The notes beneath the pieces were generated by a model, which had not been told where the DNA came from, made no database searches, and saw only the letters and a list, made by a program, of their open reading frames with translations. From Clostridiales bacterium (GTDB lineage: Bacteria; Bacillota; Clostridia; Oscillospirales; Oscillospiraceae): 38,055 nt of DNA. The stretch covers positions 1 through 38,055 of the forward strand of contig JAAYBH010000469.1 in NCBI GenBank assembly GCA_012718935.1, written 5' to 3'. Made by a program: the position numbers and the translations under genes. Positions 14,564-37,042 of this stretch are shown piece after piece. The number at the start of each line of letters is the position of its first letter. Position 1 is the stretch's first letter.

Positions 14564-16255
14564 TTACCTTTCCAAAGCCTGTCTTCGTGTTTTTTTCTCC
14601 GGCGTTATCTGAGTTTTTTGAGCCTCTTTCAGCCGGCGCCTGACGGAGAGCGCGGCATCATCGAGATTACCCTCACCAAGCTCGTAGCCGATTTCCCGAC
14701 GGGCGGCGGCGAGTCGGCTCCGGTCAAATTTGTCGCCGTAACCCTTGCGCAACGCGGTTTCGACCTTGGCCGTCTGCGCCGGACGCAGCTCGGCGCGGGT
14801 ATCCCAAACGGTCTCTGCATCTCCGGGTTTGATGTGGCCGGAGACTTCATTGTATTCTGCTAGTTCCTGCTTTTCTTTTTCGGTTAACTCAGCTTCCCGG
14901 CGATCCAGGCCGGGGAGCTCTTTTTGTATGGCCTGCAAGGACTGTTCCTTGTTTTGAACCTCGGTGTCCTTCGAGCAACTGAGTTTGGAGATCAGCATAG
15001 CTCTCTCAGATTTCAGGTCCTCGATTTCCTCCGTGAAGGTGCCGATTTTAATAGTCAGATCATGCTTTTTGACAAATTGCAGGGTGGTACGCTTATCGCG
15101 TTCGGTCTGCAGCTCTTTACGTTCCAAGGACCTGTCCTTGATAATTTTGCCGATAGTCTTATACTGTTCAAACACCGGCGCCGTTTTGTCCAGCCAGTCA
15201 TGATACTTCCACTTTTGCTGACCGACGCCGAGAAGCTGATACCGCAAAACAACAAGCCGGCTGCGGATATTCTCCAGGGCTTCCGCGATCTGCGGAACGG
15301 TTTGCAGGAGAGCGTCCAGCTTCGCTTTCAACTCCCGAAGGATGCGGTTTCCCGCTTTGATCTCCCGGTTCCAGGCGCAGCGGTCGGCGGCAACGCCGCG
15401 CTTTTCCATGGCACGGGCGGAGACGCCCTCATGGATGGTGGGCAGCTCGTCGAGGCCCCTTTCAGCGTGGCTCCGATGATCGACGCGCTCGACGCTTCCA
15501 TGTTCAGCCAAGACACGGTTTACTTCATCGGCCCAGGCTTTCCGCCACCCCACAAGCTGCTCATCGCTGTTCCAGGCCGCGCAGATCGGGTTCTGACGTC
15601 CGTAACGGGTTGCTTTGGGATGCTTAGAGATACGCTCCAGGCCCTGCGCCTCGGCCTTGGAAGGCGATAGATAGACCTTTTCTTTCCCGGCCCGGTACTG
15701 GTATTGCTTTTCCCAGCCATCATGCTGTACCGTCAGAAATTCGACGGCGGTAAAGCCCTTTTCCGCGCCGTCACGGACGCACAGATATTCTTTTTCAGTT
15801 TTCTGCTGCCATGTGCCGTCTGAATTGAGTGGCCGGACCGTCAGCATCAGATGCACGTGTGGATTGCCGTCGCCAGCGTCGTGGATACAAATATCGGCGC
15901 ACATACCCTGTGACACAAAGTTACCCTGTATGTAGCTTGTCAACAGGTCTACCCAAGCGCCATTATCCAGCTCCGCCGGCAGGGCGACGATGAGTTGCCG
16001 GGCGAGACGGCTGTCCTTTGCCGTTTCAGCAGCTTCCACCGCGTTCCAGAGCTTTTCGCGGTCGCACCAATCCGTCGGCGCTTCCGGCGGAAGAAATGTC
16101 TGCTCGTAGACAAGGCCGTACTTCCGGGTATAGTCGTGCCGCACGCCGTCGTAATCGTTAGTCATACAGCCGCAGCTCTGGTAAGCCGTCGCGGCGACGG
16201 CGGAGCGCCCGCTTCCGCGGCTTATGATTTTCGCTTCCAGATGATAAATTGCCGT
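14564..16255 (-). CDS. MobA/MobL-type (MOBQ) relaxase; canonical start codon absent
   Basis: Includes N-terminal AIYHLEAKIISRGSGRSAVAATAYQSC upstream of the ORF-track start, then MTNDYDGVRHDYTRK...NPHVHLMLTVRPL...DGAEKGFTAVEF...VDHRSHAERGLDELPTIHEGV. Start position is ACG at 16255. Confidence 0.85.
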   Translation of the reverse strand, partial: TAIYHLEAKIISRGSGRSAVAATAYQSCGCMTNDYDGVRHDYTRKYGLVYEQTFLPPEAPTDWCDREKLWNAVEAAETAKDSRLARQLIVALPAELDNGAWVDLLTSYIQGNFVSQGMCADICIHDAGDGNPHVHLMLTVRPLNSDGTWQQKTEKEYLCVRDGAEKGFTAVEFLTVQHDGWEKQYQYRAGKEKVYLSPSKAEAQGLERISKHPKATRYGRQNPICAAWNSDEQLVGWRKAWADEVNRVLAEHGSVERVDHRSHAERGLDELPTIHEGVSARAMEKRGVAADRCAWNREIKAGNRILRELKAKLDALLQTVPQIAEALENIRSRLVVLRYQLLGVGQQKWKYHDWLDKTAPVFEQYKTIGKIIKDRSLERKELQTERDKRTTLQFVKKHDLTIKIGTFTEEIEDLKSERAMLISKLSCSKDTEVQNKEQSLQAIQKELPGLDRREAELTEKEKQELAEYNEVSGHIKPGDAETVWDTRAELRPAQTAKVETALRKGYGDKFDRSRLAAARREIGYELGEGNLDDAALSVRRRLKEAQKTQITPEKKTRRQALER

Positions 16256-16461
16256 GTCCGTTCACCCCGCATCCTTTGCGCTATCCTCAGCCTGACGCGT
16301 TCCCCGTCTCCCGTGACTTTCAGCAGAAGGGCACGGGAGGCTGCCGATGCTCTGAATATGCCTCCCACGCAGCATATTCGGGAGCACCGGCGGCAAGGCG
16401 TCCGCAGATGCCGCATCCGGCCTCTCGCCGCGGCGGGCGCACGTGCCCCGCAGGGGCTGCC

Positions 16462-16500
16462 ACCACCGCCCGTGCGGGCGGTGGTTAGTAAGTGCGCCCT
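16462..16500 (+). other. Origin of transfer (oriT): hairpin plus MOBQ-type nic core
   Basis: ACCACCGCCC-gtgc-GGGCGGTGGT perfect 10-bp stem followed by tag and TAAGTGCGCCCT (16489-16500), matching the RSF1010/pSC101/pTF1-type nic consensus; adjacent to the relaxase. Confidence 0.85.
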
Positions 16501-16527
16501 TCGGGAGCTTTTTGCTCCACGTAAAAC

Positions 16528-16728
16528 TCAAAGTCTGCGGAAAATGTATTCAAGTGCCGCTTTCAGCGTCTCGCCGTCCATCGTGACGGCTTCCGGGTAG
16601 AGGCTTTCCAGGATGGCTCCGTGCTCAATGAGCCGCCGCGTTCTGGACTTGCGTTCCCGCAGCTTTTCCCGTGCTTCAGCCTCCTGCTGACGGTGTTGGG
16701 CTTGCAATTGCTCCTTGTCATCGTTCAT
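16528..16728 (-). CDS. DUF3847-type mobilization-associated small protein
   Basis: MNDDKEQLQAQHRQQEAEAREKLRERKSRTRRLIEHGAILESLYPEAVTMDGETLKAALEYIFRRL between relaxase and parR/parM; internal ATG at 16728 is the likely start. Confidence 0.7.
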   Translation of the reverse strand: MNDDKEQLQAQHRQQEAEAREKLRERKSRTRRLIEHGAILESLYPEAVTMDGETLKAALEYIFRRL

Positions 16729-16871
16729 ATGTAAAATCTCCTGCTCTTCGGTATGAGTTTTATGAAAAATGATACTATTTTTAGTTCCTGTTGGTGCAGT
16801 CACCTGAAACCGCAAGTTGCTGATGGATTTTGGTGCCGGTATCGAAATGTCTGGTGCTGTACCGGTGCAGA

Positions 16872-17285
16872 TTACCCGCCAAGAAAGTCCCAATCCACGT
16901 TTACACCGACTTCCTGCTCTGCTGCCACCGCATCCTCATTCTGAGAGTGACCGGGCCGGGAAGGAAAAGTTTGCTGCACCTGATACGGCTGTATCCATCC
17001 GGCGAGGTAGGCGGCGAGGAAGCCGGGCAGCACTCGTTCCATCGCCCTCTCAACCGCCGCCACAATCTGCGCCACGAACCGTTCTTCGCGCTCGCGTGTT
17101 TCAAGATAAGGGTCGCTTTGCGTCTTGTAATACCGCTCGAAGAAGTTCACCAGCGAGACGGCGATTGCCTGACTGTAGGACTTAAACGCCCTCTTGTCCA
17201 TCGTCTGAAGGTACTCCCAGGCCCGCCGCTGTAGAGGCTTATCCAGATTGAATCTCAAATTTGTGCTGCGGATATTGCCGCCCAT
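16872..17285 (-). CDS. ParR-like partition adaptor protein
   Basis: Small protein (RSTNLRFNLDKPLQRRAWEYLQTMDKRAFKSYSQAIAVSLVNFFERYY) directly downstream of the ParM-like gene. Confidence 0.6.
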   Translation of the reverse strand: MGGNIRSTNLRFNLDKPLQRRAWEYLQTMDKRAFKSYSQAIAVSLVNFFERYYKTQSDPYLETREREERFVAQIVAAVERAMERVLPGFLAAYLAGWIQPYQVQQTFPSRPGHSQNEDAVAAEQEVGVNVDWDFLGG

Positions 17286-17288
17286 TGG

Positions 17289-18209
17289 CTACTCCTTCCT
17301 CCGAAGGGCTGCGTATGCCAGGTATTCGTAGCCCTTCGCCGTGGCGCAGATGTCCTCGATGATGGTGACGCGCTCGGCGTCGTATTGCCCGAAATGCTTC
17401 ACTATGCAGCCGCCCCCGCCCACGATGTAGAGCCGCATCAGGTCCGGGCTATACTCGTACCGCCGCAGAGTGGCGAAAAGGGAGTCCGCGTAAGCAATGG
17501 CGACGGCCCGGATACAGTCCAGATACTTCTTCCCAATATCTGCCGTCCCGTGGCGCAAAAAGTGGTCGATGATGCTCTCGTCGATCTTGATACCAAAGCT
17601 GTCCATGACGGCGTTTTTCGCAGCGATCACACACTGGTTAACGCCCAGCTTTTCCGTCCAGCATTTACTCTCGACGGCTTTCTTGTTAATGATGTACATG
17701 ATGTTCATGGTACCGTTGCCGATGTCAGCCAGCATATTTGTTCCCCGGAAATCCCCGAGCCGCTCGATGACGGCCGGGTAGCCCTGCGGGTATAGGCTGC
17801 ATCCCTTGAACCGGATATGATACGCTGTGCCGTTAAATACAAACCGGACGTCCTCGTACCGCAGAAGATACGCCCGGAATTCCTCCCGCTGCGCCTTGAT
17901 CCAGGTCAGCGGCAGGCCGGCCGCCAGGTGCACATCCGCTTCCCGGAGTCCGTGAATATTCAGCTCCCGCGCGATAGCCATGAGGGTTAGAATGTAATAC
18001 TCGTCGTCGGACGCCTTGTCCGGCGTGAATTCCTTGTGGCCTTCTCCGATACGGTAGTAGGTGCTCTCGTACTCCAAAATGTTTCCAGTGAAAATGGGGT
18101 CCGTCTTGCAGGCGACGAGGCCGGTTGGGGTTACGGTATTGACCGTCTTGATGTTCCCATAGCCGTGGTCAACGGCGATGATTTTTTTGCCGTCCTCCAG
18201 CTCGCGCAT
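17289..18209 (-). CDS. ParM/StbA-like actin-fold plasmid segregation ATPase
   Basis: IIAVDHGYGNIKTVNTV, DIGNGTMNIMYI, LYIVGGGGCIVKHF actin-like phosphate and adenosine motifs. Confidence 0.85.
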   Translation of the reverse strand: MRELEDGKKIIAVDHGYGNIKTVNTVTPTGLVACKTDPIFTGNILEYESTYYRIGEGHKEFTPDKASDDEYYILTLMAIARELNIHGLREADVHLAAGLPLTWIKAQREEFRAYLLRYEDVRFVFNGTAYHIRFKGCSLYPQGYPAVIERLGDFRGTNMLADIGNGTMNIMYIINKKAVESKCWTEKLGVNQCVIAAKNAVMDSFGIKIDESIIDHFLRHGTADIGKKYLDCIRAVAIAYADSLFATLRRYEYSPDLMRLYIVGGGGCIVKHFGQYDAERVTIIEDICATAKGYEYLAYAALRRKE

Positions 18210-21774: not shown

Positions 21775-22659
21775 TTACTCTATCCGTTCATAATTGCCGC
21801 TCAAATGCGCCCATTCGGAGCCTTCCGGGGCAAACAATTCGATTGCGCTGTTATCCCCATAGAGGATGAATGACAGTTCGCCATATTCCGCCGTGTAGTC
21901 GGTATCAGAAGAGATCGTTGCCTTTCCTTCAAGTACATCGCTGCCGTTTCTGAGCAAATAAATCTCGAAATCAAAGAAGCTGACATCGTTGTAGTTGGTA
22001 ACCGTTATAGAGAATCCCGCGTCTCTATCTATATACTCGCCATCCCAATACGGGGCGTCTGTATATATTTCGCCGTCGCCGATATCATCGAAGGTATCGC
22101 CGCGCCCGTCATCGCCGCCGATTATATCGCCCATACCACCGCTGAAATCATCATAAATGGCAGCCGACCATTCACTGTAATCCACGGCGGCGCGGTATAC
22201 CACTTGATAGTCGTCGCCCATAAGCCCGCCCTCGATGGTTCCTACTGCTATGGAATAGATGTAGCACCCATGTCCCATCGCAGAATCAAGGAACAGCAAG
22301 TCGTCAAGTGAGATATAGACGCACCGGTCGGAGCCTACCAGATCGAAAAAGTCCGTGCGCGTGAGCACGTCGCTCACCACCAAGTCCGCGCCTTCTCTGG
22401 GCGTTGCCCCGCCGCCGCTGTCGCCTGAAAGCTCATAAAGCTCATAATAATAGATTCCCTGCCCGATTTCTTCTGCGCCTGCGGGTATATTCCCATTCTC
22501 GCTATTCCCCGGTGAAGACGTTGGAGCAGTCCCGCTGTTCTCACTCTTCGGTGTGACGGGAGGACTGTTGCTGTCAGCATTGCTGTTCTCATTGCCGCCG
22601 CAAGCGGTAAGAGAGAGAGTCAGCGCAAGCGCCAGTGCGATTGTAAAAAACTTTTTCAT
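21775..22659 (-). CDS. Lipoprotein, unknown function
   Basis: MKKFFTIALALALTLSLTACGG with SD GGGGCGAAGG; an in-frame upstream ATG at 22743 also has an SD-like GAGGGGG. Confidence 0.7.
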   Translation of the reverse strand: MKKFFTIALALALTLSLTACGGNENSNADSNSPPVTPKSENSGTAPTSSPGNSENGNIPAGAEEIGQGIYYYELYELSGDSGGGATPREGADLVVSDVLTRTDFFDLVGSDRCVYISLDDLLFLDSAMGHGCYIYSIAVGTIEGGLMGDDYQVVYRAAVDYSEWSAAIYDDFSGGMGDIIGGDDGRGDTFDDIGDGEIYTDAPYWDGEYIDRDAGFSITVTNYNDVSFFDFEIYLLRNGSDVLEGKATISSDTDYTAEYGELSFILYGDNSAIELFAPEGSEWAHLSGNYERIE

Positions 22660-22799
22660 TTCCTTCGCCCCTTGAAATGTTTTTTCATTAGTCGACTTTT
22701 CATTTATAACTTTCGTTGTTTTACTTGTTACGTTGGTTTTCATTGTCTTTCCCCCTCGTGGATTGTTTTTTTGAACAGACAGCCAGCATTCGCCATGAA

Positions 22800-22850
22800 A
22801 ATTTTATCATCTGTTTCCAGCCGAAACGGAAAATCAAGAATATTTGATAC
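22800..22850 (-). promoter_or_regulatory. Outward-facing 51-bp promoter/operator element, copy L
   Basis: Reverse strand GTATCAAATATTCTTGATTTTCCGTTTCGGCTGGAAACAGATGATAAAATT; 46/51 identical to 23780-23830 in inverted orientation; ends with extended -10 TGATAAAAT. Confidence 0.8.
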
Positions 22851-22866
22851 AGGGCTGTCAAAGCAA

Positions 22867-22894
22867 AGAGCGCCCTCGTTTCCGATGGCGCTCT
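22867..22894 (-). terminator. Terminator of the response regulator gene
   Basis: Reverse strand AGAGCGCC-atcggaaacgag-GGCGCTCT followed by TTGCTTTG. Confidence 0.65.
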
Positions 22895-22948
22895 GATGAA
22901 AATCCTGTATCTGACGACTATAAAACATTGCGGACAGGCGGACGATGC

Positions 22949-23644
22949 CTATTCATAGACGACCTTTAAAAACACATAGCTCTTGTTGCTCATGGAGCGG
23001 ATTTCAAAGGGACTGTCGATATCTAGCCCCAGCTTTATGCGGATACTGGAGATGTGCGCCGTCACCGTATGGGTGGAGTTGTTGGAGGGCGCGCCCCATA
23101 CCGCTTCATAGAGATCGGCGGCAGGGCATTGCCGCCCGGCGTGGCTCACCAGGTAAGCCAGAAGCTGAAGCTCCTTCTGTGTCAGCGCGACGGCCTGTCC
23201 GCCCAGCGTCGCGGTTCCGTTCTGCAGGTTGATCGAAAGAGGCGGCATGTCGATACGCCCCGCGCCGTGAAGCCCCGACCGGCGAAGCTGCGCCATGACG
23301 CGCGCGGACAGCACGTTTAAATCGCAGGGTTTTGTTATATAGTCGTCCCCGCCGTCGCAAAGTCCCCGGACGATGTCCTCGTTCTGCCCAAGGCAGGTGA
23401 GGTATATCACCGGAGCGGTGGTGATTTCACGCATTTCCCGGCAAAAATCGTATCCGGAGCCGTCAGGCAGCATCACATCCAAAAGCACAAGGTCCGGCGG
23501 GTTGTCAAGGATGGCGGACCTGGCGTCTGCCAGTGTCTGGACGGCGATGATCTCATAGCCCTGCGCCTCAAGATGCTCCTTATTCACAAGCAGCACATCG
23601 GGTTCATCCTCCACAATGAGAATGCGCGGTCTTCTTGTACTCAT
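22949..23644 (-). CDS. OmpR/PhoB-family response regulator (orphan)
   Basis: Receiver RILIVEDEPDVLLVNKEHL...DLVLLDVMLPDGSGYDFCRE...GDDYITKPCDLNVLSARV; winged-helix LTQKELQLLAYLVSHAGRQCPAADLYEAVWG...VTAHISSIRIKLG. No histidine kinase adjacent. Confidence 0.95.
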   Translation of the reverse strand: MSTRRPRILIVEDEPDVLLVNKEHLEAQGYEIIAVQTLADARSAILDNPPDLVLLDVMLPDGSGYDFCREMREITTAPVIYLTCLGQNEDIVRGLCDGGDDYITKPCDLNVLSARVMAQLRRSGLHGAGRIDMPPLSINLQNGTATLGGQAVALTQKELQLLAYLVSHAGRQCPAADLYEAVWGAPSNNSTHTVTAHISSIRIKLGLDIDSPFEIRSMSNKSYVFLKVVYE

Positions 23645-23682
23645 ACCATATCCCCCGCCTAACATCGAACAATTCGTCTGTT

Positions 23683-23709
23683 CGCCCGGCTCACGCCGGG
23701 CGTTTTTTA
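23683..23709 (+). terminator. Strong plus-strand Rho-independent terminator with no plus-strand gene upstream
   Basis: CGCCCGGC-tcac-GCCGGGCG-TTTTTTATTTC. Confidence 0.8.
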
Positions 23710-23723
23710 TTTCTTAATATCCA

Positions 23724-23752
23724 ATTATAACACATAATGACAGACGTTGTAA
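23724..23752 (-). promoter_or_regulatory. Promoter of the response regulator gene
   Basis: Reverse strand TTACAA (23747-23752) - 17 nt - TATAAT (23724-23729). Confidence 0.65.
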
Positions 23753-23779
23753 GCAGGGACTGAAATGTCGTGACAAAAG

Positions 23780-23830
23780 GTATCAAATATTCTTGATTTT
23801 TCGTTTCGGCTGAAAATGGATGATAGAATT
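23780..23830 (+). promoter_or_regulatory. Outward-facing 51-bp promoter/operator element, copy R
   Basis: GTATCAAATATTCTTGATTTTTCGTTTCGGCTGAAAATGGATGATAGAATT; contains dyad ATCAA-atattc-TTGAT and extended -10 TGATAGAAT; upstream of 23877. Confidence 0.8.
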
Positions 23831-23876
23831 CCCGTGGCAGATGTTGATCATGCGTTTTTGAAAGGCGGCGGGTATT

Positions 23877-24134
23877 TTGAAAATAAGAAGTGTCGCGACG
23901 GCTGTCCGTGAAGGCGAGGGCCTGCTTGACACGATGCTGGACATCCATTTTGACAACGGGCAGACCATCCTCTTATCGCTTGAATCCAGGATGAATGACC
24001 CGCAGTTTATCCAGCTGCACAAAAACGGACAGCTGACGCGGCCGAGAACGGACGGGCTGCGCGTCTACTGGCAGAACGGCCCTTCCCTGTCCCTGGAGGA
24101 AATCATGGCAATCACGAGGGGGGAGCGATTATGA
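23877..24134 (+). CDS. Small DUF2442-like protein, paralogue 1
   Basis: LDIHFDNGQTILLSLESRMNDPQF...RTDGLRVYWQNGPSLSLEEIM; ATGA overlap with next gene. Confidence 0.55.
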   Translation: MKIRSVATAVREGEGLLDTMLDIHFDNGQTILLSLESRMNDPQFIQLHKNGQLTRPRTDGLRVYWQNGPSLSLEEIMAITRGERL

Positions 24135-24373
24135 AACGGAAGATTGTAAAGGTCGAAGCAATGGAAGGTCAGCCGTACCTGATCGCCGTTGAGTTTGACA
24201 ACGGCAACATCATTCTTCTGATGCTTGAGTCCAAATTAAGCGATCCTCTGTTTGCCGAAATTGAAGCGCTTTCCAACCCGAAGACGGACGGGGAACGCGT
24301 GTTTTGGATTAACGGGGCGAGCCTGACGGTGGACGAAATCATGGGAATGCTGGAATCAGGAAACGGCGGATGA
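24131..24373 (+). CDS. Small DUF2442-like protein, paralogue 2
   Basis: IAVEFDNGNIILLMLESKLSDPLF...KTDGERVFWINGASLTVDEIM; clear similarity to the preceding ORF. Confidence 0.6.
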   Translation: MKRKIVKVEAMEGQPYLIAVEFDNGNIILLMLESKLSDPLFAEIEALSNPKTDGERVFWINGASLTVDEIMGMLESGNGG

Positions 24374-24469
24374 GAAGCGGATATGCCCGCGCAAACGAAA
24401 CCTGGTTAACCAGAGGAAAGCACAAGCAACGATCTCTATGGCGACAGTAATTTTAAAGGGGTGTCATCA

Positions 24470-25876
24470 ATGAGCGAAGAGAATAAAACAAACAGTGGAG
24501 CGCCATCCTCCGATACGACCTCCGCACTTTTTGTGTCCGCGCGCAAAAAGCAGCTGGAACAGCAGGAAGCCGAGCGACGGGCAAAGGAAAAGGAAGATGA
24601 GCGCCTGAAGGCCGAGGCGGAGGTCCGCCGGCTGGAAGCCGAGGTGGCCGAGCGCAAGCGCCGGGCGGAAGAGGAAGCGCAGCGCGTTGCCCAGGAGGAG
24701 GAACAGAGCCGGAGGGAAGCGGAGGAACGCCGCAGAAGGGCGGCCGCCGAGGCTGAAGCCGAAGACCGCCGTCAGGCCACCGAAGCCGAGGCCCGCCGGA
24801 AGGAAGCGCAGAGGCAGGCCGCCGAGGCTGAAGCCCGTCGGAAGGAAGCGCAGAAAACGCAGGCCGCCGGGCAGGCCGCCGGAAAAACCTTCAGTATGCC
24901 GAAATTGGCATTACGGAAGGAGGCCGCCGTCGGAGAAAAAAAGAAACTTCCGGTTCCGCTGCACTTCATCATCGCCGGCGCGGCGGTGATTGTTCTCGCC
25001 GTCGTCCTTGTGCTGGTTTTTGTTCTCGGCGGCAAAGGCGGCAAGGGCCCGAGCGAGCCCGACTTCGCCTCCCTGCTTTTGGAGAATGACGGCGGATGGT
25101 ATCTCAACGGCGATAAGAGCTCATTCTGCCTCATCACCGACGGGGACGGCAGCTGGGAGCTGTACGACGGCGACGGAATCCTTGGCATCTACGGGTATTT
25201 CATTGTCGAGGACGACGGAACGATCTGGGCGGAGAGCGATGACGAGGAAGGTTTTGCCGCGCTTATCAGTTTTGTCGATGAAAATTGCTTCTATTTTGAG
25301 AAGGAGATTTTTTACAGCGAAGCGTTCAGCACGGACGCCGGTCAGTATGACGAGGACGATTACGACGGCTATTCCGAGAGCACCCTGTATATCGACCCCG
25401 ACGCGGCGCTTAACGACAGCGGGATAATCGACGGTCTGGGCATGCTGATCCGTTTTCCGGATACTGTTTTCCAGCTTAAAAGCGCTACGGAGAGCCGCCT
25501 TTTCCTCTCCTCGCTTGACGGCGCCGCTTCCATCGAGGCCGCGAAGGGCGAGTCCTACGGCGAGGTCACGCGGGAGGAGATGGGGTATTACAGAGATAAA
25601 AAGCTCGACAAATTGTCGACCTCCCTGCCCGGCGAAATTACCCTGCTTGACAGCGGCCTCTACGATAACAACAGCGGCTTCCCCTTTGTCTATTTCAAGC
25701 TGTCTTATGCCGGGACGTACGAAACGCGCTACGTTTGCTTTATCGCGGCGCTTTGGCAGAACGAGCGCACCGGCGCGACAAACTTTTATGATTTCGTGCT
25801 CGATTGCCCGGAAGAGCTGACGGACGACTATATGGCGCTGTTCAACCGCATTCGTGCTTCGGTGGACGACGCCTGA
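24470..25876 (+). CDS. Coiled-coil / single-TM / extracellular-domain protein of the T7SS locus
   Basis: Glu/Arg/Ala-rich coiled coil, TM LHFIIAGAAVIVLAVVLVLVFVLGG, then a Gly/Asp-rich extracellular domain (DGGWYLNGDKSSFCLITDGDGSWELYDG). ATG 24470 preferred over GTG 24461. Confidence 0.75.
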   Translation: MSEENKTNSGAPSSDTTSALFVSARKKQLEQQEAERRAKEKEDERLKAEAEVRRLEAEVAERKRRAEEEAQRVAQEEEQSRREAEERRRRAAAEAEAEDRRQATEAEARRKEAQRQAAEAEARRKEAQKTQAAGQAAGKTFSMPKLALRKEAAVGEKKKLPVPLHFIIAGAAVIVLAVVLVLVFVLGGKGGKGPSEPDFASLLLENDGGWYLNGDKSSFCLITDGDGSWELYDGDGILGIYGYFIVEDDGTIWAESDDEEGFAALISFVDENCFYFEKEIFYSEAFSTDAGQYDEDDYDGYSESTLYIDPDAALNDSGIIDGLGMLIRFPDTVFQLKSATESRLFLSSLDGAASIEAAKGESYGEVTREEMGYYRDKKLDKLSTSLPGEITLLDSGLYDNNSGFPFVYFKLSYAGTYETRYVCFIAALWQNERTGATNFYDFVLDCPEELTDDYMALFNRIRASVDDA

Positions 25877-25915: not shown

Positions 25916-28900
25916 ATGATGCGGTTGTTAATGACGGTCGTTTTTGAAAACGGCTTTCAGGAGATATATCTCCCCAGCGCAAACAACAAAAACGTGCCCA
26001 TCGCGATCCGGCCCCATATCAGCGGCTGGCATGAGGATATCACGCTGCCTCTGGAGGTCTGGGACGACGTCTGGCAGATGAGCGGCAGTGAGCAATTTGT
26101 CATTACCGTTAACGAACGCCCTGTCGACAAGGCCGTTCTTGTCCCGGGCCTTCTGCTCAACTGCGAAATGCGCGCAGACCGCGAAACGGTGTTCTCCGTG
26201 ACCTTCAACGAGGTTGACGAAGGAAACACCCGGTTTGACAAGTATTTTCTTGATTTTTCAGTCTGCCCCTGGGTGAAGATCGGCAGCGGCGAAGGAAGCG
26301 TCGTCACATATAAAAACCAGTTCTGCTCGCCGCAGCACGCGGAGATCGTCAGCGAGGACGGAAGAGTCGTCGTCCGTGATCTTGGCAGCGTCAACGGCAC
26401 CTTTGTGGGCGGACGCATGCTCACCGGCGACCATACGCTGAAATACGGCGATGAGATCTATATTATCGGGCTTAAAATCGTCTATCTCGGCAATGTCCTC
26501 GCCATCAACAATCCCGGCGGCGCCTGCGCGGTGGACGACCGGAAGCTCAAGCCGATACATATCGATACGGCCGCAGACGGCGACGCGGCCCACGCGTATG
26601 ACGGTGAGGAAGCGTACTTCCTCCGCACCCCGCGAAAGGTTGAGAAGCTCGATGACGAGACCTTTATGATCGAAAAGCACCCGTCGAAGGACCGGCAGAA
26701 AAAGCAGCCGGTGATCTTTACCATCGGGCCGACGTTTACAATGATGATCCCCATGGTCGCGGGCGTGATGATGATGGGCGGCGAGGGCGCGTCGGCCGTC
26801 AGCGGCATTGTCATGTCCGTGGGCGCCGCACTGATCGGCGGCATGTGGGCGGTGCTGAATATACGGTATCAGAAAAAGGAGGAGGCGGAGTCCGAGTCCT
26901 CCCGTATCCATAACTACACCGCGTATATCGCGAAGATCGCCCAGCGCATCCAGCAGAAGCTGATCTACAACCACGGCGTTTTGGAAAGAATGCTGCCCTC
27001 CGGCGCGGAGGTGGCTCACTTCCCTGTTGAGGGAAGCGCCCGCCTCTGGGAAAAAAGCAGCACCCACGACGACTTCCTCGCCATACGCCTGGGCACCGGG
27101 GAGATCTTATCTCCCAACAGAATCGAGGTGCCGAAGGAGCAGCTCATGGCGGAGCACGACCCCCTGAACGAAAAGGTGGAGGAGATCCAGCAGGCCATGT
27201 CCGCGCTGAAAAACGTACCCGTGGACATTTCCGCCTACAGGAACAGAATGATCGGCATCGTGAGCCGGGACAGGGAAAACGTATTAAATATCGGAAATGT
27301 TATCAGCGCGCAGCTTGCGGGGCTTCACGCCTATACGGAGGTCCGGCTGTGTTACATATACCCGATGAAAGAGGCGGACAGCTGGGATTACGTCCGCTGG
27401 CTGCCCCATGTGTGGACGCCGGACGGCAAACTCCGCATGATCGCCAACGACAAGAACACCGTGGGCGACGTGATGTTCCACATATCGGGCGTTATCCGCG
27501 ACAGGCTGGAGCGGGCCGGCAGCGAGGAGGACGAGGCAAAGCTTCTGCCGCATTATGTGGTCATTGTGGCCGACTGGTCGCTGGTGGAGGATGAGCCGGT
27601 GGCCAAGTACCTGATGAATCCGCAGCCCGAGCTGGGCATGTCCGTGATTTATCTGGTGGACGCCGTCGACAAGCTGCCCAGCGGCTGCACGGCCATTGTC
27701 CAGGATGACGATGAAAACCGCGGCTTTTACAGCGCGATCGGGCTGTTCCCCCAGAGAGACCGCGTGACCTACGACAGGCTTTCCCTGGAACAGGTGGAGC
27801 GTTTTGCCCGCAGCCTTTCAAATTACAGGGTCCGGGAGATGAACGCCTCCGCGGCGATACCGGATATGCTGACCTTCCTCGATATGTACAAGACCTCAAG
27901 GGTGGAGGAGCTTGATATTCTGCACAAGTGGCTGGAAAACCGTACCTATGAGAGCATGAAGAGCATGGTGGGCTATAAATCCGGCGGCCAGCCGCTGTAC
28001 CTGGATATCCATGAAAAATATCACGGCCCCCACGGGCTGGTGGCCGGAACGACGGGGTCCGGCAAATCCGAGACGCTGCAAAGCTACATCCTCTCCCTGG
28101 CGGTGAGCTACCACCCCCATGAGATCGCCTTTATCCTCATCGACTATAAGGGCGGCGGCATGGCCCAGAGCTTCGTCGGCCTGCCCCATCTCTCCGGCGT
28201 CATCACAAATCTCGGCGGAAACGCCACAAACAGGGCGCTTTTGTCCATCAACGCGGAGATCAAATCCCGCCAGCGCATCTTCAACGAATACAAGGTCAAG
28301 CACATCGACGCGTACATCGAGCTCTACCGCTCCGGTGTGGCCACCGAGCCCATGCCCCATCTGCTCATTATCGCCGACGAGTTCGCCGAGCTTAAAAAGG
28401 AGCAGCCGGAATTTGTGCGCGCCCTCGTCTCCGCCGCCCGGGTGGGCCGTTCTCTGGGCGTCAATCTCATTCTCGCCACACAGAAGCCCAGCGGCGTCGT
28501 CGACGACGAGATCTGGTCCAACACCCGCTTCCGGCTCTGCCTGCGCGTTGCCGACAAGCAGGACAGCAACGAGATGCTCAAGCGGCCCGACGCGGCCTTT
28601 ATCACAGGGACTGGCCGCGGATATTTCCAGGTCGGAAACGACGAAATCTTCGAGGAATTTCAATCCGGCTGGTCCGGCGCGGAATACGAGCCAGACGTGC
28701 CCTTTACCGACGATAAGAACGTTAAGGTAGAGCTGATCAATCTCATCGGAAAAAACGGTGTGCCTAAAAAGAAAAGCAAGAAAAAGAGCGACAATATCGC
28801 AAAGGTCACCCAGCTTGACGCCCTGGTGCAATACGCGTCGAAGCTGGCTGATGAAAACAGCATCCCGGCCATCAAGCAGATATGGATGCCCCCCCTTCCC

Positions 28901-30532
28901 AAAACCGTTTATCTGGAGGACCTGGCGGAGGTTCCGAAGCCGGAGGGGTTCTCGCTCCTTCTGCCCATAGGTCTCGCGGACAATCCGGAGGGGCAGAATC
29001 AGTACCCCTGCGCCGTGGACTTTATCGCCGACGGGCATCTGCTTATATGCGGCGCGGGCGGCTCGGGGAAAACGACGCTGCTTCAGACCCTGATTTACGG
29101 CGCCGCCAACCGCTATTCGGCGAAGGAGGTCAACATCTACGCGGCGGACTTCTCCAGCCGCACCATGGCCGTGTTCTCCGCGTTGCCCCACGTGGGCGGC
29201 GTGATGTTTGAAGGGGACGATGAGGCGATTTCCGAGACCTTTGAAATGCTGCTGAAAACCCTTGCCCAGCGCAAGAGCGAATTTTCGGCCCAGGGCATCG
29301 GCTCATTCCGGGAATATGTGTCCCAGCATGACGACTGCCCGGCGATTCTGCTGATCGTCGACAACTACCCGGCCTTTATCGAGAGCTACGAGAAGTATGA
29401 GGATACCGTTGCCCAGCTCTCCCGGGAAGCGGCCAGCTACGGCATATACCTCGTGCTCACCATGAACAACGCCGGCGAGCTTCGCAGCCGTATCCGGCAG
29501 AATTTTACAGCGGGTATCGCCCTTCAGATGCCCGACCGGTTCGAATATGAGGCCGTCATCGGCGACCGCACGGAAATCGTCCCCGAAAACCGCATCTCCG
29601 GGCGCGGCCTGATCAAGGCCCCGCTGCCGGTGGAGTTCCAGACCGCCCTGTGCGTGCGGGAGGACGAGGGCCTCTCCCAGGTGCAGACCCTCCGCCGCCG
29701 GTTCGCGGCCATGAAGCCCGCCGAGGGCGACGGCGTGAAACGGATCGGCTACAAGCTGGATCATTTGAGCTTCGACACCCTGATGGGCCGCGCCGATGTG
29801 AAAAGCCTGCCGCAGAACACGCTGGCCATCGGGCTGGATATGGAAAGCGGCGCGCCGGTGACGGTGAACCTCGACGAGGAATTCTGCTATACGGTGGGAG
29901 GCGCGGGCGGCTCCGGAAAAACAAACCTCCTGACGGCCCTCGCCAAACAGGCAAAGTCGAAAAAGGCGAGGCTCTACCTGTTCGATAACCCGGGCGGCGC
30001 GCTGGAACGGCAGGTCTCCTTCGACAGGGCCGTCCACAACGACGCGGAGCTGTTCGAGCTGATGGAATCCGTCATCGTGGGCGAGTTTTCAAACCGGAAC
30101 GGTATCGTGGCGGATACGCGGGACGCGGGCGGCGATATCGCAAACGCCTTAAAGAGCCATGACCGCATCGTGTTTCTGATCAACGACATGAGCGCGTTCA
30201 TTTCGGCAGTTTACAGCCCCGGCATAGATATGAGCGGCTTCTTTGAGATTGCCCTTGAAAAGGGCTTCGGGCATAAAATACAGTTCTTCGCGGCCGTCAC
30301 GCCGGACGACTGGGCCGATATGGCGCGCTACACGGCCATGCGTACCTACGCGGGATACCGCAGGGGCGTGCATCTTGGCGGGCTGTTCGACCAGCAGAGC
30401 ATTCTGCAGTTCGCGGTATCCGCCGCCGACAACGTGCGCCAGCTTGCCCCGGGCATAGGATATGCCGCCGGCCTAGACGGCGGCGCCGTCAGGATCATGA
30501 CGCCGCAGGTCAGTGAGGAGGATGTGAAATGA
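25916..30532 (+). CDS. essC: EssC-like type VII secretion FtsK/SpoIIIE ATPase with FHA domain
   Basis: FHA motif (CSPQHAEIVSEDGRVVVRDLGSVNGTFVGG), two TMs, three P-loops GTTGSGKSET, GAGGSGKTTL, GGAGGSGKTNL. Confidence 0.95.
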   Translation: MMRLLMTVVFENGFQEIYLPSANNKNVPIAIRPHISGWHEDITLPLEVWDDVWQMSGSEQFVITVNERPVDKAVLVPGLLLNCEMRADRETVFSVTFNEVDEGNTRFDKYFLDFSVCPWVKIGSGEGSVVTYKNQFCSPQHAEIVSEDGRVVVRDLGSVNGTFVGGRMLTGDHTLKYGDEIYIIGLKIVYLGNVLAINNPGGACAVDDRKLKPIHIDTAADGDAAHAYDGEEAYFLRTPRKVEKLDDETFMIEKHPSKDRQKKQPVIFTIGPTFTMMIPMVAGVMMMGGEGASAVSGIVMSVGAALIGGMWAVLNIRYQKKEEAESESSRIHNYTAYIAKIAQRIQQKLIYNHGVLERMLPSGAEVAHFPVEGSARLWEKSSTHDDFLAIRLGTGEILSPNRIEVPKEQLMAEHDPLNEKVEEIQQAMSALKNVPVDISAYRNRMIGIVSRDRENVLNIGNVISAQLAGLHAYTEVRLCYIYPMKEADSWDYVRWLPHVWTPDGKLRMIANDKNTVGDVMFHISGVIRDRLERAGSEEDEAKLLPHYVVIVADWSLVEDEPVAKYLMNPQPELGMSVIYLVDAVDKLPSGCTAIVQDDDENRGFYSAIGLFPQRDRVTYDRLSLEQVERFARSLSNYRVREMNASAAIPDMLTFLDMYKTSRVEELDILHKWLENRTYESMKSMVGYKSGGQPLYLDIHEKYHGPHGLVAGTTGSGKSETLQSYILSLAVSYHPHEIAFILIDYKGGGMAQSFVGLPHLSGVITNLGGNATNRALLSINAEIKSRQRIFNEYKVKHIDAYIELYRSGVATEPMPHLLIIADEFAELKKEQPEFVRALVSAARVGRSLGVNLILATQKPSGVVDDEIWSNTRFRLCLRVADKQDSNEMLKRPDAAFITGTGRGYFQVGNDEIFEEFQSGWSGAEYEPDVPFTDDKNVKVELINLIGKNGVPKKKSKKKSDNIAKVTQLDALVQYASKLADENSIPAIKQIWMPPLPKTVYLEDLAEVPKPEGFSLLLPIGLADNPEGQNQYPCAVDFIADGHLLICGAGGSGKTTLLQTLIYGAANRYSAKEVNIYAADFSSRTMAVFSALPHVGGVMFEGDDEAISETFEMLLKTLAQRKSEFSAQGIGSFREYVSQHDDCPAILLIVDNYPAFIESYEKYEDTVAQLSREAASYGIYLVLTMNNAGELRSRIRQNFTAGIALQMPDRFEYEAVIGDRTEIVPENRISGRGLIKAPLPVEFQTALCVREDEGLSQVQTLRRRFAAMKPAEGDGVKRIGYKLDHLSFDTLMGRADVKSLPQNTLAIGLDMESGAPVTVNLDEEFCYTVGGAGGSGKTNLLTALAKQAKSKKARLYLFDNPGGALERQVSFDRAVHNDAELFELMESVIVGEFSNRNGIVADTRDAGGDIANALKSHDRIVFLINDMSAFISAVYSPGIDMSGFFEIALEKGFGHKIQFFAAVTPDDWADMARYTAMRTYAGYRRGVHLGGLFDQQSILQFAVSAADNVRQLAPGIGYAAGLDGGAVRIMTPQVSEEDVK

Positions 30533-30783
30533 GCAGAATTTATCTGGAGGTCCGGGTACCCGGCGCCGCAAAAACGTATGAATTCACCGCCGACAGCGTG
30601 ATGACCGTGAAAAATGTGAAAACGCAGTTTATCAGACAGATATCGGCGGTCGAAGACCGGGAAATCTTCGCCGACGCCGGCCAGGTCCTGTTCTGCTCCG
30701 TGCGCCTTCAGGGGCTGCTGCAGGACCAGGAGATCCTGGGCGAGGTGGGCGTGACAAGCGGAGATACGATCATTCTCCTGTAA
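30529..30783 (+). CDS. YukD/EsaB-like ubiquitin-fold T7SS protein
   Basis: 84 aa immediately after EssC (ATGA overlap); ubiquitin-like pattern ending LGEVGVTSGDTIILL. Confidence 0.8.
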   Translation: MSRIYLEVRVPGAAKTYEFTADSVMTVKNVKTQFIRQISAVEDREIFADAGQVLFCSVRLQGLLQDQEILGEVGVTSGDTIILL

Positions 30784-30826: not shown

Positions 30827-31126
30827 ATGCCCGATATGAGCAATGTGGATTCCGACAAGATCCTCTCCGCGGTCGGTCAGCTTGACGGAATTACGGATTC
30901 AATTCAAGGCTGCGTGGGAAAAATCGCCGATTCCGTGGAGACGCTGGATAAGGGCTGGGTTTCAAGCGTTAAAGCGGAATTCATGACCCGGTATCAGCGG
31001 GACTGGGAAGCCATGCAGGAGATGCTTGCCCAATACCGCGAAATAAGCGCCCAGCTTCGGGAGGCGGCACAGGATTTCGACAAAACGGAAAGCGAGCTTC
31101 TCTCTCGCGTTTCCGCGCTGGGATAA
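30827..31126 (+). CDS. WXG100-like protein (WVS variant)
   Basis: ~100 aa helical hairpin, LDKGWVSSVKAEFM, C-terminal FDKTE. Confidence 0.7.
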   Translation: MPDMSNVDSDKILSAVGQLDGITDSIQGCVGKIADSVETLDKGWVSSVKAEFMTRYQRDWEAMQEMLAQYREISAQLREAAQDFDKTESELLSRVSALG

Positions 31127-31139
31127 GGGGTGAAACATC

Positions 31140-31463
31140 ATGGCCACAGGCAATGAAAGCAAAATCGACACAAAGCTGTTTTCGTCCACCGCCGACGCCG
31201 TCGCCGCGTCCGTCAAGGAAATCGACCGGCTTTGCCAGGAGTGGAGCAAGGCGATGACCGGCCTGCGCGGCGAATGGCAGGGCGACGTCTCCGACGACGT
31301 GAAAAACACGGTCGAGCAGGTGAAGAAAAGCGCCGCCGACCTGGTTGCCAATCTCTCCGGGTATCCCGTCACGCTGCGGGAGATCGCCGGGATTTACGAC
31401 AAGACGGAACAGAACGTCCAGGAAACCGGCAAAACCCTTAAATTCGAAAAAACCTTTCGGTGA
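31140..31463 (+). CDS. WXG100 family protein
   Basis: LRGEWQGDVSDDVKNTVEQ and C-terminal YDKTE (YxxxE). Confidence 0.8.
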   Translation: MATGNESKIDTKLFSSTADAVAASVKEIDRLCQEWSKAMTGLRGEWQGDVSDDVKNTVEQVKKSAADLVANLSGYPVTLREIAGIYDKTEQNVQETGKTLKFEKTFR

Positions 31464-31485: not shown

Positions 31486-32889
31486 ATGAAGAAATGGATA
31501 TGCGCCGTAACCGCGCTGTGGATGCTCTTAATACCGCTTGCAGCCTGCGATTCGGCAGACAGCGGCGGCGGTTATGAAGAACCGTACGTGGAGGATATGC
31601 AGGAGGACGGCGGCGATACGGATGAGCTCGCCGGCGCGGAGGAAACGGCCGGCGCCTACAGGGAGCCCCTGACCGGCGCGCTGATTACATATCCGGAGAG
31701 CCTGACAGACAAATACGAATACGACTCAACGCACGGCAAGGGCATGAGCATTTCGGACTACGAGTCGGATTACCCTGTCCAACTGGAAATCGTCGTCGAC
31801 GATATCTTTGTGAACAGTCTCGACGAGGCCTATGAGAAGTTCGGATTCGGTTCGGGCTTTGACGAAACCGTGCTGCTGGCCTACACCGGCAACTACATGG
31901 CGTTTTACACTGAATCGTGGTCCGCCTTTGGAGACGCCACCCATGTATATCGGTGGCTCTGCCTGCTCACAGACGGCAGCGTCCTGCACGTGTCGATGCG
32001 GACAGAGGCGGAGGGCCATGCGTCGCTGGCGCAGCAGGTCGGCATTGATTTCACAGCCGGCGGCGGCGAGCTCGGGCTGGCCCCGGCCGGCGGGCTGGCG
32101 CCGTACGCGGGCGACTCGGCCGCGGCGGGCATATGGTATAACGCCGGCAGCGACTGCTGGCTCGACTGCTCCGGCGGCGTGCTGTACGCGCTGTATGACG
32201 GCGGCGGCGGCGTGCTCGACTGCGGGGTATACGACGGCTTCTGGGGCAGAATAAAGGGCCTTGACGGCGAGAACCGCAGCGTCTGGGCGGCGGACGGCGG
32301 ATTGGAAATCGACGGGTACGACGGCGTGTTCCGGCCGGCGGATTCGCTGGGGATCATCCCGGCCGGTATCCCCGCGGGGATACCGCGGGAGGGTACGCCG
32401 GCCGGCGAGAGCTCCGGCGCGCTGTCGGAATACCGCGGCCAGTGGGAAAATAACGCCTTTACCTGCAGCCTGGACATCAACCGGGGCGGCGTCATCATCA
32501 CCACGGGCGACAGCTTCAGTTCCCGGGATTACACGGTCACGGAGGAGGGCTATCTTGAGCTTTCCGACGGCGCGCTGATCCGGCCCGACGGCAGCGGCGG
32601 GCTGACCGTTGACGGCTATGAGGGCGTTTTTGTCCGGAAGGGCAAGGCCGGAGACCTTTACGCGCCGTATACCGGCCAGTGGCATAACGACGATACGGGG
32701 GACACCATCTGGCTGCAGGATGGGGGCGGCTACAGTTATCAGACCGACGACGATAGCTTTGGCTTCAGCGGATGGCATGTCACGGGAGACGGGACCCTGG
32801 TCATCGCCAACGAGCCTGCGCATATCGACGAGAATGGAAATCTGGTCATCCAGGGATACGACGGAGTATTCGTCAGGGAGGCGGAGTAA
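31486..32889 (+). CDS. Lipoprotein with three repeated GxW...DGYDGVF modules
   Basis: MKKWICAVTALWMLLIPLAACDS lipobox; module ends GLEIDGYDGVFRP, GLTVDGYEGVFVRK, NLVIQGYDGVFVRE. Confidence 0.8.
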   Translation: MKKWICAVTALWMLLIPLAACDSADSGGGYEEPYVEDMQEDGGDTDELAGAEETAGAYREPLTGALITYPESLTDKYEYDSTHGKGMSISDYESDYPVQLEIVVDDIFVNSLDEAYEKFGFGSGFDETVLLAYTGNYMAFYTESWSAFGDATHVYRWLCLLTDGSVLHVSMRTEAEGHASLAQQVGIDFTAGGGELGLAPAGGLAPYAGDSAAAGIWYNAGSDCWLDCSGGVLYALYDGGGGVLDCGVYDGFWGRIKGLDGENRSVWAADGGLEIDGYDGVFRPADSLGIIPAGIPAGIPREGTPAGESSGALSEYRGQWENNAFTCSLDINRGGVIITTGDSFSSRDYTVTEEGYLELSDGALIRPDGSGGLTVDGYEGVFVRKGKAGDLYAPYTGQWHNDDTGDTIWLQDGGGYSYQTDDDSFGFSGWHVTGDGTLVIANEPAHIDENGNLVIQGYDGVFVREAE

Positions 32890-33182
32890 TGGCAATTAAA
32901 TTCGACTACAATCAAACGATCAGCCAGGCAAAGCAGCTGGAGGAGCTGGCCACCGATATGCAGAACCAATGCGTCAAAAAAATGGGGTCGGTGTACGAAA
33001 ACGTCGCCGCGGCGTGGACCGGCGAGGCGGCGAAGACCTACCTGAAATATATCCAGGGCGTTTCGGACGACCTGTCCAAAAAGGCCAAATACCTGCGCGA
33101 TGTGGCCGCCTTTCTGCGGGAAGCCGCGAAAAAAATACAGGCGGCGGACGCCGCCGCGAAGCAGTCGGCCCAGAAAATATGA
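32889..33182 (+). CDS. WXG100 family protein
   Basis: VAAAWTGEAAKTYLKY; TAATG overlap with the previous gene. Confidence 0.85.
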   Translation: MAIKFDYNQTISQAKQLEELATDMQNQCVKKMGSVYENVAAAWTGEAAKTYLKYIQGVSDDLSKKAKYLRDVAAFLREAAKKIQAADAAAKQSAQKI

Positions 33183-33202: not shown

Positions 33203-33511
33203 ATGGCGCAGAGTACTGTCGACATTCAGAAAATGAAAAGCGTGGCTTCGGAGCTTGATAAAAACTACGCGACCATCAATAATCAGCTGAAAAAAATGGA
33301 TGAGAGCATGGGCGTCCTGTCGCAAATCTGGACGGGAGAGGGCGCCTCGGCCTATCAAAACGCCTATCTTCAGAACACGCAGAACTTCGTACAGCTGGCC
33401 GAGGCGATCAACAGCTGCTCGACTTCCCTGACGGCGATCGCCAATACATACAACAAAGCCGACATGGCGGCGGCCGACGCCATCAAGTCGAAAATGGGGG
33501 GCAGAAAATAA
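33203..33511 (+). CDS. WXG100 family protein
   Basis: LSQIWTGEGASAYQNAY; C-terminal YNKAD (YxxxD). Confidence 0.88.
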   Translation: MAQSTVDIQKMKSVASELDKNYATINNQLKKMDESMGVLSQIWTGEGASAYQNAYLQNTQNFVQLAEAINSCSTSLTAIANTYNKADMAAADAIKSKMGGRK

Positions 33512-33834
33512 TGGCAAACGCGATTCAGGCCGATCCGGCCAAGCTGCGGAAAATTGCCGAAGACATCGGCAAGGTGCATACATCCCTGCGCAATACCCTT
33601 TACACGTCAAACAGCCAGGTCGGCTCCCTGAAGGGCGTCTGGACGGGCGACGCGGCGGCGGCCTTCAACGTCAGCTTCCAAAAGGTCCTGGATAAATGCG
33701 CGGAAAGTCTGGCGACGGTGGAGCGGCTTGTACACGCGCTGTACGATTCCGCCGACGCGTACGAGCGCAATGAAAAGGCCGTACAGCAGGAGGCCTCGAA
33801 GCTGCCGAAGCTGCCCAACAACACCATGCGGTGA
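33511..33834 (+). CDS. WXG100 family protein
   Basis: LKGVWTGDAAAAFNVSF; C-terminal YDSAD/YERNE; TAATG overlap with previous gene. Confidence 0.88.
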   Translation: MANAIQADPAKLRKIAEDIGKVHTSLRNTLYTSNSQVGSLKGVWTGDAAAAFNVSFQKVLDKCAESLATVERLVHALYDSADAYERNEKAVQQEASKLPKLPNNTMR

Positions 33835-34902: not shown

Positions 34903-34975
34903 GCCGTTACGACGTATAACCGAAAAAAACAATACCAGTTGGGTAACCATATCTTAATTTTTCGGAGGATATAAA

Positions 34976-36876: not shown

Positions 36877-36930
36877 TATGATCGGCGGCGCGGCTGCTTG
36901 ATACCCTACGGCAAGTTCTCCGGCCATGAA

Positions 36931-36981
36931 AAATAGCCCTTATGGATTTTGCTGTTTTACGCATGTCCATAGGGGTTATTT
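36931..36981 (+). terminator. Putative imperfect terminator hairpin
   Basis: AAATAGCCCTTATGGA ... TCCATAGGGGTTATTT (G-U pairs), weak T-tract. Confidence 0.45.
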
Positions 36982-36983
36982 AC

Positions 36984-37012
36984 TTGAAAGTTCATCTATA
37001 AACGGCTACAAT
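36984..37012 (+). promoter_or_regulatory. Putative promoter of the 7TM sensor gene
   Basis: TTGAAA - 17 nt - TACAAT. Confidence 0.6.
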
Positions 37013-37042
37013 AATGGAATAATCCTAAAAGGCCGCAGGGAG

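What the first reader, a model, noticed from the sequence alone, without database searches (positions are those of the whole stretch)
22800..23830. Two outward-facing, 46/51-identical promoter/operator elements flank an orphan OmpR-type regulator between a lipoprotein operon and a T7SS operon
22800-22850 read on the minus strand (GTATCAAATATTCTTGATTTTCCGTTTCGGCTGGAAACAGATGATAAAATT) and 23780-23830 on the plus strand (GTATCAAATATTCTTGATTTTTCGTTTCGGCTGAAAATGGATGATAGAATT) differ at 5 of 51 positions, all transitions. Each faces outward: L toward the minus-strand lipoprotein/DUF3137/LemA cluster, R toward the plus-strand DUF2442-like/T7SS cluster. Both contain the dyad ATCAA-atattc-TTGAT, end in an extended -10 (TGATARAAT) and lack a good -35, which is typical of activator-dependent promoters. 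Only the response regulator gene, with its own -35/-10 and terminator, lies between. Inference: the regulator coordinates both arms as one surface/secretion system.
Basis: partly seen in the sequence, partly recalled or inferred. Interest (0 to 1): 0.85.

Follow-up and report, generated by a model that had tools for sequence, protein, structure and literature searches.

The report
Twin switch sites around a regulator
Two near-identical control sites flank a bacterial regulator gene, and relatives of that regulator in other bacteria carry a similar site at the same spot, so one sensor-regulator pair probably switches on both a protein-secretion gene cluster and a neighbouring lipoprotein gene cluster.

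Summary
22784-22850(-) and 23780-23846(+) are 56/67 identical and all 11 differences are transitions. There are only two copies in the 3.3-Mb genome and no full copy in 401 genomes of the family. Orthologues of the regulator in unrelated families mostly sit divergent from a DUF2442-like gene. In seven loci the upstream region holds a dyad (about GGTNAAGATTTCTTNACC) whose centre lies 35.5 bp from an extended -10, with no good -35. A weight matrix trained only on those loci picks exactly R and exactly L as the best site of their upstream regions (expected 0.002-0.004 and 0.004-0.010 by chance), with the -10 one base closer. R is in the conserved place; L is an extra copy before a lipoprotein gene. 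Correction: the regulator is not a clear orphan, because a kinase of its partner family (cut by the contig end) lies at 36926-38055. Two other loci of the genome (C297, C361) carry the canonical site before DUF2442-like/lipoprotein genes. Best reading: a two-component operator, duplicated so as to co-regulate a T7SS operon and a lipoprotein operon. Binding, direction of control and kinase pairing are inferred.

The parts
22784..22850 (-). Element L: operator/promoter copy facing the lipoprotein operon; dyad ATCAAATATTCTTGAT at 22833-22848, extended -10 TGATAAAAT at 22801-22809
   Evidence: best site in its 289-bp upstream region by an ortholog-trained matrix
23780..23846 (+). Element R: operator/promoter in the conserved position between regulator and DUF2442-like gene; dyad at 23782-23797, extended -10 TGATAGAAT at 23821-23829
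22949..23644 (-). OmpR/PhoB-family response regulator (start ATG 23644)
   Evidence: Pfam Response_reg 1.2e-22 and Trans_reg_C 4.7e-16; ortholog family
23724..23753 (-). Regulator's own promoter (CTTACA-18-TATAAT, extended -10)
22860..22893 (-). Terminator-like hairpin after the regulator gene (GAGCGCC/GGCGCTC then T-rich)
   Evidence: read; loop too long for the scan
23877..24134 (+). DUF2442-like small protein 1 (TTG start, first gene after R)
24131..24373 (+). DUF2442-like small protein 2
24461..25876 (+). 471-aa protein with a charged repeat region and an apparent membrane segment (by eye), T7SS cluster
   Evidence: no Pfam family above cut-off
25916..30532 (+). EssC, T7SSb ATPase
   Evidence: TIGR03928, 1108 bits against cut-off 778
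30529..30783 (+). YukD/EsaB-like protein
   Evidence: PF08817 E 8.8e-4, below gathering score
30827..33834 (+). Five WXG100 proteins (30827-31126, 31140-31463, 32883-33182, 33203-33511, 33511-33834) and a lipoprotein (31486-32889)
   Evidence: PF06013 matches above cut-off
21775..22659 (-). Lipoprotein gene after L (start ATG 22659; an upstream in-frame ATG at 22743 is less likely)
   Evidence: 50% identical to the lipoprotein of paralogous locus C297
18441..21723 (-). Rest of the L-side cluster: two lipoproteins, DUF3137 protein, LemA protein
   Evidence: PF11335 and PF04011
36926..38055 (+). Sensor histidine kinase of the family that partners orthologs of the regulator (7TM-DISM type), cut by the contig end

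Best explanation
L and R are two copies of the operator-promoter of the intervening OmpR-type regulator. The phosphorylated regulator binds as a dimer to the dyad (centre about -47 from the predicted start), next to the vacant -35 position. It recruits RNA polymerase to an extended -10, switching on in one direction the DUF2442-like/T7SS genes and in the other the lipoprotein/DUF3137/LemA genes. R is the ancestral site, conserved with the regulator; L arose by duplication of R (or conversion by it) and brought the lipoprotein gene under the same control. Signal input is probably from a 7TM-DISM histidine kinase of the family encoded at 36926-38055. Shown: the duplicated elements, their promoter anatomy, the conserved position, dyad and spacing across orthologous loci, and the partner-family kinase. 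Inferred: binding, activation rather than repression, operon extent, kinase pairing, direction of duplication.
For: Repeat is real and confined to the two promoters. Regulator/DUF2442-like divergent pairing recurs in C297 of the same genome, G332, G963, G498, G445, G1178 and G1232, and with a longer gap in G1402; a histidine kinase gene lies tail-to-tail with the regulator in all of these. Seven orthologous upstream regions (C297, G332, G1178, G1232, G1319, G445, G567) align without gaps over 51 bp: dyad, then -10 at position 45; G963 has a different dyad (GATTAC-N6-GTAATC) at the same spacing. Matrix from non-window loci: R and L are the best sites of their upstream regions, chance expectation 0.0016-0.004 and 0.004-0.010, and no background hit combined such a score with a correctly placed extended -10 in 1.5 Mb of simulation; they rank 2 and 3 in the 38-kb window. 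In the same genome the canonical 51-nt model finds just two strong sites: C297 (a training sequence, before DUF2442-like and lipoprotein genes) and C361 (not in training, E 9e-9, before a lipoprotein). The lipoprotein after L is 50% identical to one in the C297 cluster.
Against: L and R are divergent from the canonical site: the 51-nt model does not find them and identity to C297/G332 by free alignment is at noise level; their case rests on dyad position, right half-site, TTnCG and -10 spacing. An 18-bp dyad-only matrix does not single them out either; the 23-bp stretch that does was chosen after seeing the alignment. L and R are duplicates, so they are not two independent matches. G498, G098 and G1402 give no clear site. 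No binding or expression data. The genome is a fragmented bin (541 contigs, 5.8% contamination), so C297 and C361 may not be from the same cell.
Confidence: 0.72

Rival explanations
1. L and R are promoters that share a site for a different transcription factor or a special sigma factor; the regulator gene merely lies between them.
For: No binding data; L and R differ from the canonical site of the orthologous regulators. The paralogous regulator of C297 could be the one that binds.
Against: The dyad plus -10 arrangement follows the regulator across unrelated families and lies in its upstream intergenic region. Its sequence varies between regulator subgroups: the window regulator is 48% identical to that of C297 and its site differs; that of G963 differs again.
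Confidence: 0.15
2. The regulator binds L and R but represses, or both activates and represses depending on phosphorylation.
For: A dyad next to the -35 position could block polymerase; sequence alone cannot give the sign.
Against: Lack of a -35 with a dyad immediately upstream is the usual design of an activated promoter; the site lies upstream of, not over, the -10 and start in all loci.
Confidence: 0.15
3. The pair are terminal inverted repeats of a small mobile element carrying the regulator.
For: Inverted repeats flank a single gene.
Against: The sharp edge is on the inner side and the outer edge fades, the reverse of a transposon end; no transposase between; no third copy in the genome or full copy in 401 family genomes; R is in a position conserved without any L.
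Confidence: 0.02
4. The repeats are recombination sites of an invertible segment that flips the regulator.
For: Inverted repeats; orientation-dependent switches exist in Clostridia (own knowledge); a serine recombinase-like gene lies on contig C361.
Against: Arms are only 84% identical over 67 nt; inversion would leave near-identical promoters facing outward; orthologs keep the same regulator/DUF2442 orientation.
Confidence: 0.03
5. The repeats act as structured RNA leaders.
For: A 5-bp stem TTTCC/GGAAA in L becomes TTTTC/GAAAA in R, a compensatory-looking pair.
Against: The stem lies upstream of the -10 and would not be transcribed from it; no credible Rfam match; the stem is not conserved in orthologous sites.
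Confidence: 0.03

Closest known systems
OmpR/PhoB-family regulators with inverted-repeat operators: GraR (S. aureus), BceR, VirR; CmrR (C. difficile)
   Same: OmpR-type regulator, short dyad upstream of a promoter. GraR: palindrome ACAAATTTGT upstream of -35 sequences, essential for induction (PMC3128592). CmrR: ACAATNNNNNNNNATTGT, 18 bp, activation of the downstream start (PMC12548384).
   Different: Dyad sequence, no good -35, DUF2442-like target gene, kinase of 7TM-DISM type, and here two duplicated sites around the regulator gene.
Two-component control of T7SSb (DegSU in B. subtilis; ArlRS and SaeRS in S. aureus)
   Same: A two-component system governs T7SS genes (review PMC10765036).
   Different: Those are global regulators encoded elsewhere; here the regulator sits beside the T7SS cluster and its operator is also placed before a lipoprotein cluster.
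Classical divergent regulator/target pairs with an operator in between (own knowledge)
   Same: Regulator divergent from its target, operator in the shared intergenic region.
   Different: A second, nearly identical operator beyond the regulator's 3' end.

Membership tests
OmpR/PhoB response regulators | Receiver domain plus Trans_reg_C winged helix | tested here: met
   both above gathering score
OmpR/PhoB response regulators | Conserved phospho-acceptor Asp and switch Thr/Lys in the receiver | tested here: met
   D55, T82, K104 invariant in the alignment
OmpR/PhoB response regulators | Operator of tandem direct repeats, as in PhoB or OmpR (usual, not universal) | tested here: not met
   the conserved feature is a dyad, not a direct repeat; the inverted-repeat subgroup (GraR, CmrR) is the better analogue; membership rests on the two domains
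Two-component pair with adjacent kinase | Cognate kinase gene next to the regulator | tested here: not met
   kinase of the partner family is about 13 kb away and cut by the contig end
T7SSb (Firmicutes) | EssC-type ATPase | tested here: met
   TIGR03928 above cut-off
T7SSb (Firmicutes) | WXG100 substrates | tested here: met
   five proteins above PF06013 cut-off
T7SSb (Firmicutes) | EsaB/YukD protein | tested here: inconclusive
   E 8.8e-4, below gathering score
T7SSb (Firmicutes) | EssB, EssA, EsaA membrane parts | not tested
   no dedicated search was made
Transposon or MITE ends | Sharp outer ends with target-site duplication | tested here: not met
   outer edges fade, inner edges are sharp
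Transposon or MITE ends | Several copies in the genome | tested here: not met
   only this pair
DUF2442 (PF10387) | Score above the curated cut-off | tested here: not met
   best relative 19.9 bits against 23.9; window copies 12-14 bits; hence 'DUF2442-like'

The most novel reading that the evidence does not exclude
A so far undescribed signalling module of Clostridia-type bacteria (7TM-DISM kinase, OmpR-type regulator, divergent DUF2442-like small protein, and a conserved dyad/extended -10 operator) normally drives large surface proteins, several with S-layer homology domains. In this organism it has captured a type VII secretion system and, by copying its operator to the other side of the regulator, a lipoprotein operon. 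The regulator is now driven by a kinase whose own regulator has decayed (fragments on contig C361).
Probability: 0.35. Interest if true: 0.6.

Novelty: new variant of a known kind. Interest (0 to 1): 0.47.

Why it matters
It gives a concrete, testable operator and regulator for a type VII secretion cluster in a Clostridia-type bacterium, and shows how a two-component system can widen its regulon by copying its operator to the other side of its own gene. The same operator pattern defines a family of signalling modules next to surface-protein genes, which no paper found here describes.

Tried and rejected
Dispersed repeat or mobile element: rejected. Structured RNA: no credible Rfam match, and the compensatory-looking stem is upstream of the start. 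Coding constraint as cause of the all-transition pattern: the changed positions show no three-base periodicity. Free best-match alignment of R with orthologous intergenic regions was at noise level, so I aligned by dyad centre and then tested with a matrix trained without window sequences. The 51-nt model built from orthologs did not find L or R, which I count against a strong identity claim. The genome-contig scan with four regulators was swamped by generic response regulators and gave one useful locus, L108. Inverted repeats like L/R were sought at five orthologous loci and not found, so the doubling is peculiar to this locus. A matrix hit at 34942 outscored R but overlaps a ribosome-binding site, has no -10 at the right distance and is not a clean dyad; left as unresolved.

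Full report
OBSERVATION. The repeat finder lists them as the best inverted pair of the window, 67 nt and 84%. Laid side by side, 22850 down to 22784 and 23780 up to 23846 share 56 of 67 positions; the 11 differences are all transitions, and to nt 75 there are 16 transitions and one transversion. Bases upstream of GTATCAA, on the side facing the regulator, are unrelated; on the downstream side the likeness fades out. The genome (3.3 Mb, 541 contigs) has no third copy, and none of 401 family genomes has a full copy.

ANATOMY. Each copy has the dyad ATCAA-ATATTC-TTGAT, then, 26 bp further on, the extended -10 hexamer (TGATARAAT), with no good -35. R's predicted start lies about 40 nt before the TTG of a DUF2442-like gene (23877), with AAAGGCGG as a possible ribosome site. 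L lies before a lipoprotein gene whose likely start is 22659. The regulator (22949-23644, minus) has its own -10 TATAAT and a terminator-like hairpin at 22860-22893 just before L. A plus-strand terminator-like hairpin at 23683-23702 lies upstream of R.

SURROUNDINGS. Right arm: two DUF2442-like proteins, EssC (TIGR03928, 1108 bits), a YukD-like protein and five WXG100 proteins. Left arm: lipoproteins, DUF3137, LemA. At 36926-38055, cut by the contig end, is the N-terminal part of a 7TM-DISM sensor kinase, 81% identical to the kinase that partners the orthologous regulator in genome G332. The regulator is therefore not clearly an orphan.

RELATED LOCI. Searches of class, order, family and phylum samples with the regulator or its alignment gave orthologs with the same arrangement: kinase tail-to-tail with the regulator, and the regulator divergent from a DUF2442-like gene, often followed by a large secreted protein; in G332, G1178 and G1232 that protein carries S-layer homology domains. 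In G098, G567 and G1319 the regulator is divergent from another secreted or surface-type gene instead. Contig C297 of the same genome holds such a locus: DUF2442-like gene, a 450-aa lipoprotein, and a lipoprotein 50% identical to the one after L. None of the related loci fetched held EssC.

PHYLOGENETIC FOOTPRINT. Seven of these upstream regions (C297, G332, G1178, G1232, G1319, G445, G567) align without gaps over 51 bp: dyad GGTNAAGATTTCTTNACC, then about TTNCGCAC, an A/T-rich stretch, and a -10 (commonest form TGCTACNNT) starting at position 45, dyad centre 35.5 bp upstream. G963, one of the window regulator's nearest relatives in the tree (support 81/66), has a different dyad, GATTAC-N6-GTAATC, at the same 35.5-bp spacing. 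In the window the spacing is 34.5 bp. A 23-bp matrix made only from non-window loci, scanned over the window, ranks R second and L third, well above the next site. Within their upstream regions R and L are the best sites, expected 0.0016-0.004 and 0.004-0.010 times by chance; no hit in 1.5 Mb of simulated sequence combined such a score with an extended -10 at the right distance. Caveats: L and R are copies, so this is one independent event; the training alignment was set by dyad centre and the 23-bp stretch was chosen after seeing it; an 18-bp dyad-only matrix does not single them out; the longer 51-nt model does not recover L or R.

SAME-GENOME SITES. That 51-nt model finds two strong sites in the genome: C297 (in training) and C361:289-337 (not in training, E 9e-9), the latter before a lipoprotein gene. 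C361 begins with the last 40 residues of a kinase 83% identical to that of G332, followed by fragments of a decayed regulator on both sides of the operator-lipoprotein unit. It may be the continuation of the window's kinase gene, with about 0.84 kb missing; this is an inference from contig ends.

MECHANISM. The most likely reading is class-II-like activation: the regulator dimer on the dyad, centred near -47, contacts polymerase at promoters lacking a -35. Inverted-repeat operators are established for OmpR-type regulators: GraR (PMC3128592) and CmrR of C. difficile, whose 18-bp site ACAATATTCAAGAATTGT is of the same size (PMC12548384). Two-component control of T7SSb is known, but by regulators that also control much else (PMC10765036). 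R, in the conserved place, is probably the parent and L the copy. At position 22 R matches the orthologous pattern (TTTCG) and L does not, which agrees.

VERDICT. Observation confirmed; interpretation supported in its core, corrected on 'orphan', and extended to a family of modules. It is a well-supported regulatory prediction rather than a new kind of system.

Noticed in passing
window 36926-38055: N-terminal part of a 7TM-DISM sensor histidine kinase, cut by the contig end, 81% identical to the kinase next to the orthologous regulator in G332.
   Followed up: yes
L187 (G000:C361) 2-1146: Kinase C-terminus, then fragments of a decayed response regulator at 134-244 and 1040-1146 (minus strand) on both sides of a canonical operator (289-337) and a lipoprotein gene (415-945).
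   Followed up: partly
window 34942-34964: Top-scoring match of the operator matrix, but it overlaps the ribosome-binding site of a lipoprotein gene (34976) and has no properly placed -10; chance or a repression site.
   Followed up: partly
window 23683-23709: Strong plus-strand terminator-like hairpin between regulator start and R with no plus-strand gene to terminate; in the regulator's mRNA it would form a 5' hairpin.
   Followed up: no
window 22784-22850 and 23780-23854: Divergence between the two copies is almost purely transitions (16 to 1 over 75 nt), stronger than the usual bias.
   Followed up: partly
L062, L170, L172: DUF2442-like gene followed by very large S-layer-homology surface proteins, apparently controlled by the same kinase/regulator/operator module.
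   Followed up: partly
window 14564-18209: Relaxase-like gene (14564-16165) and ParM-like gene (17289-18209) next to the LemA cluster, suggesting a mobilisable element nearby (judged by eye).
   Followed up: no
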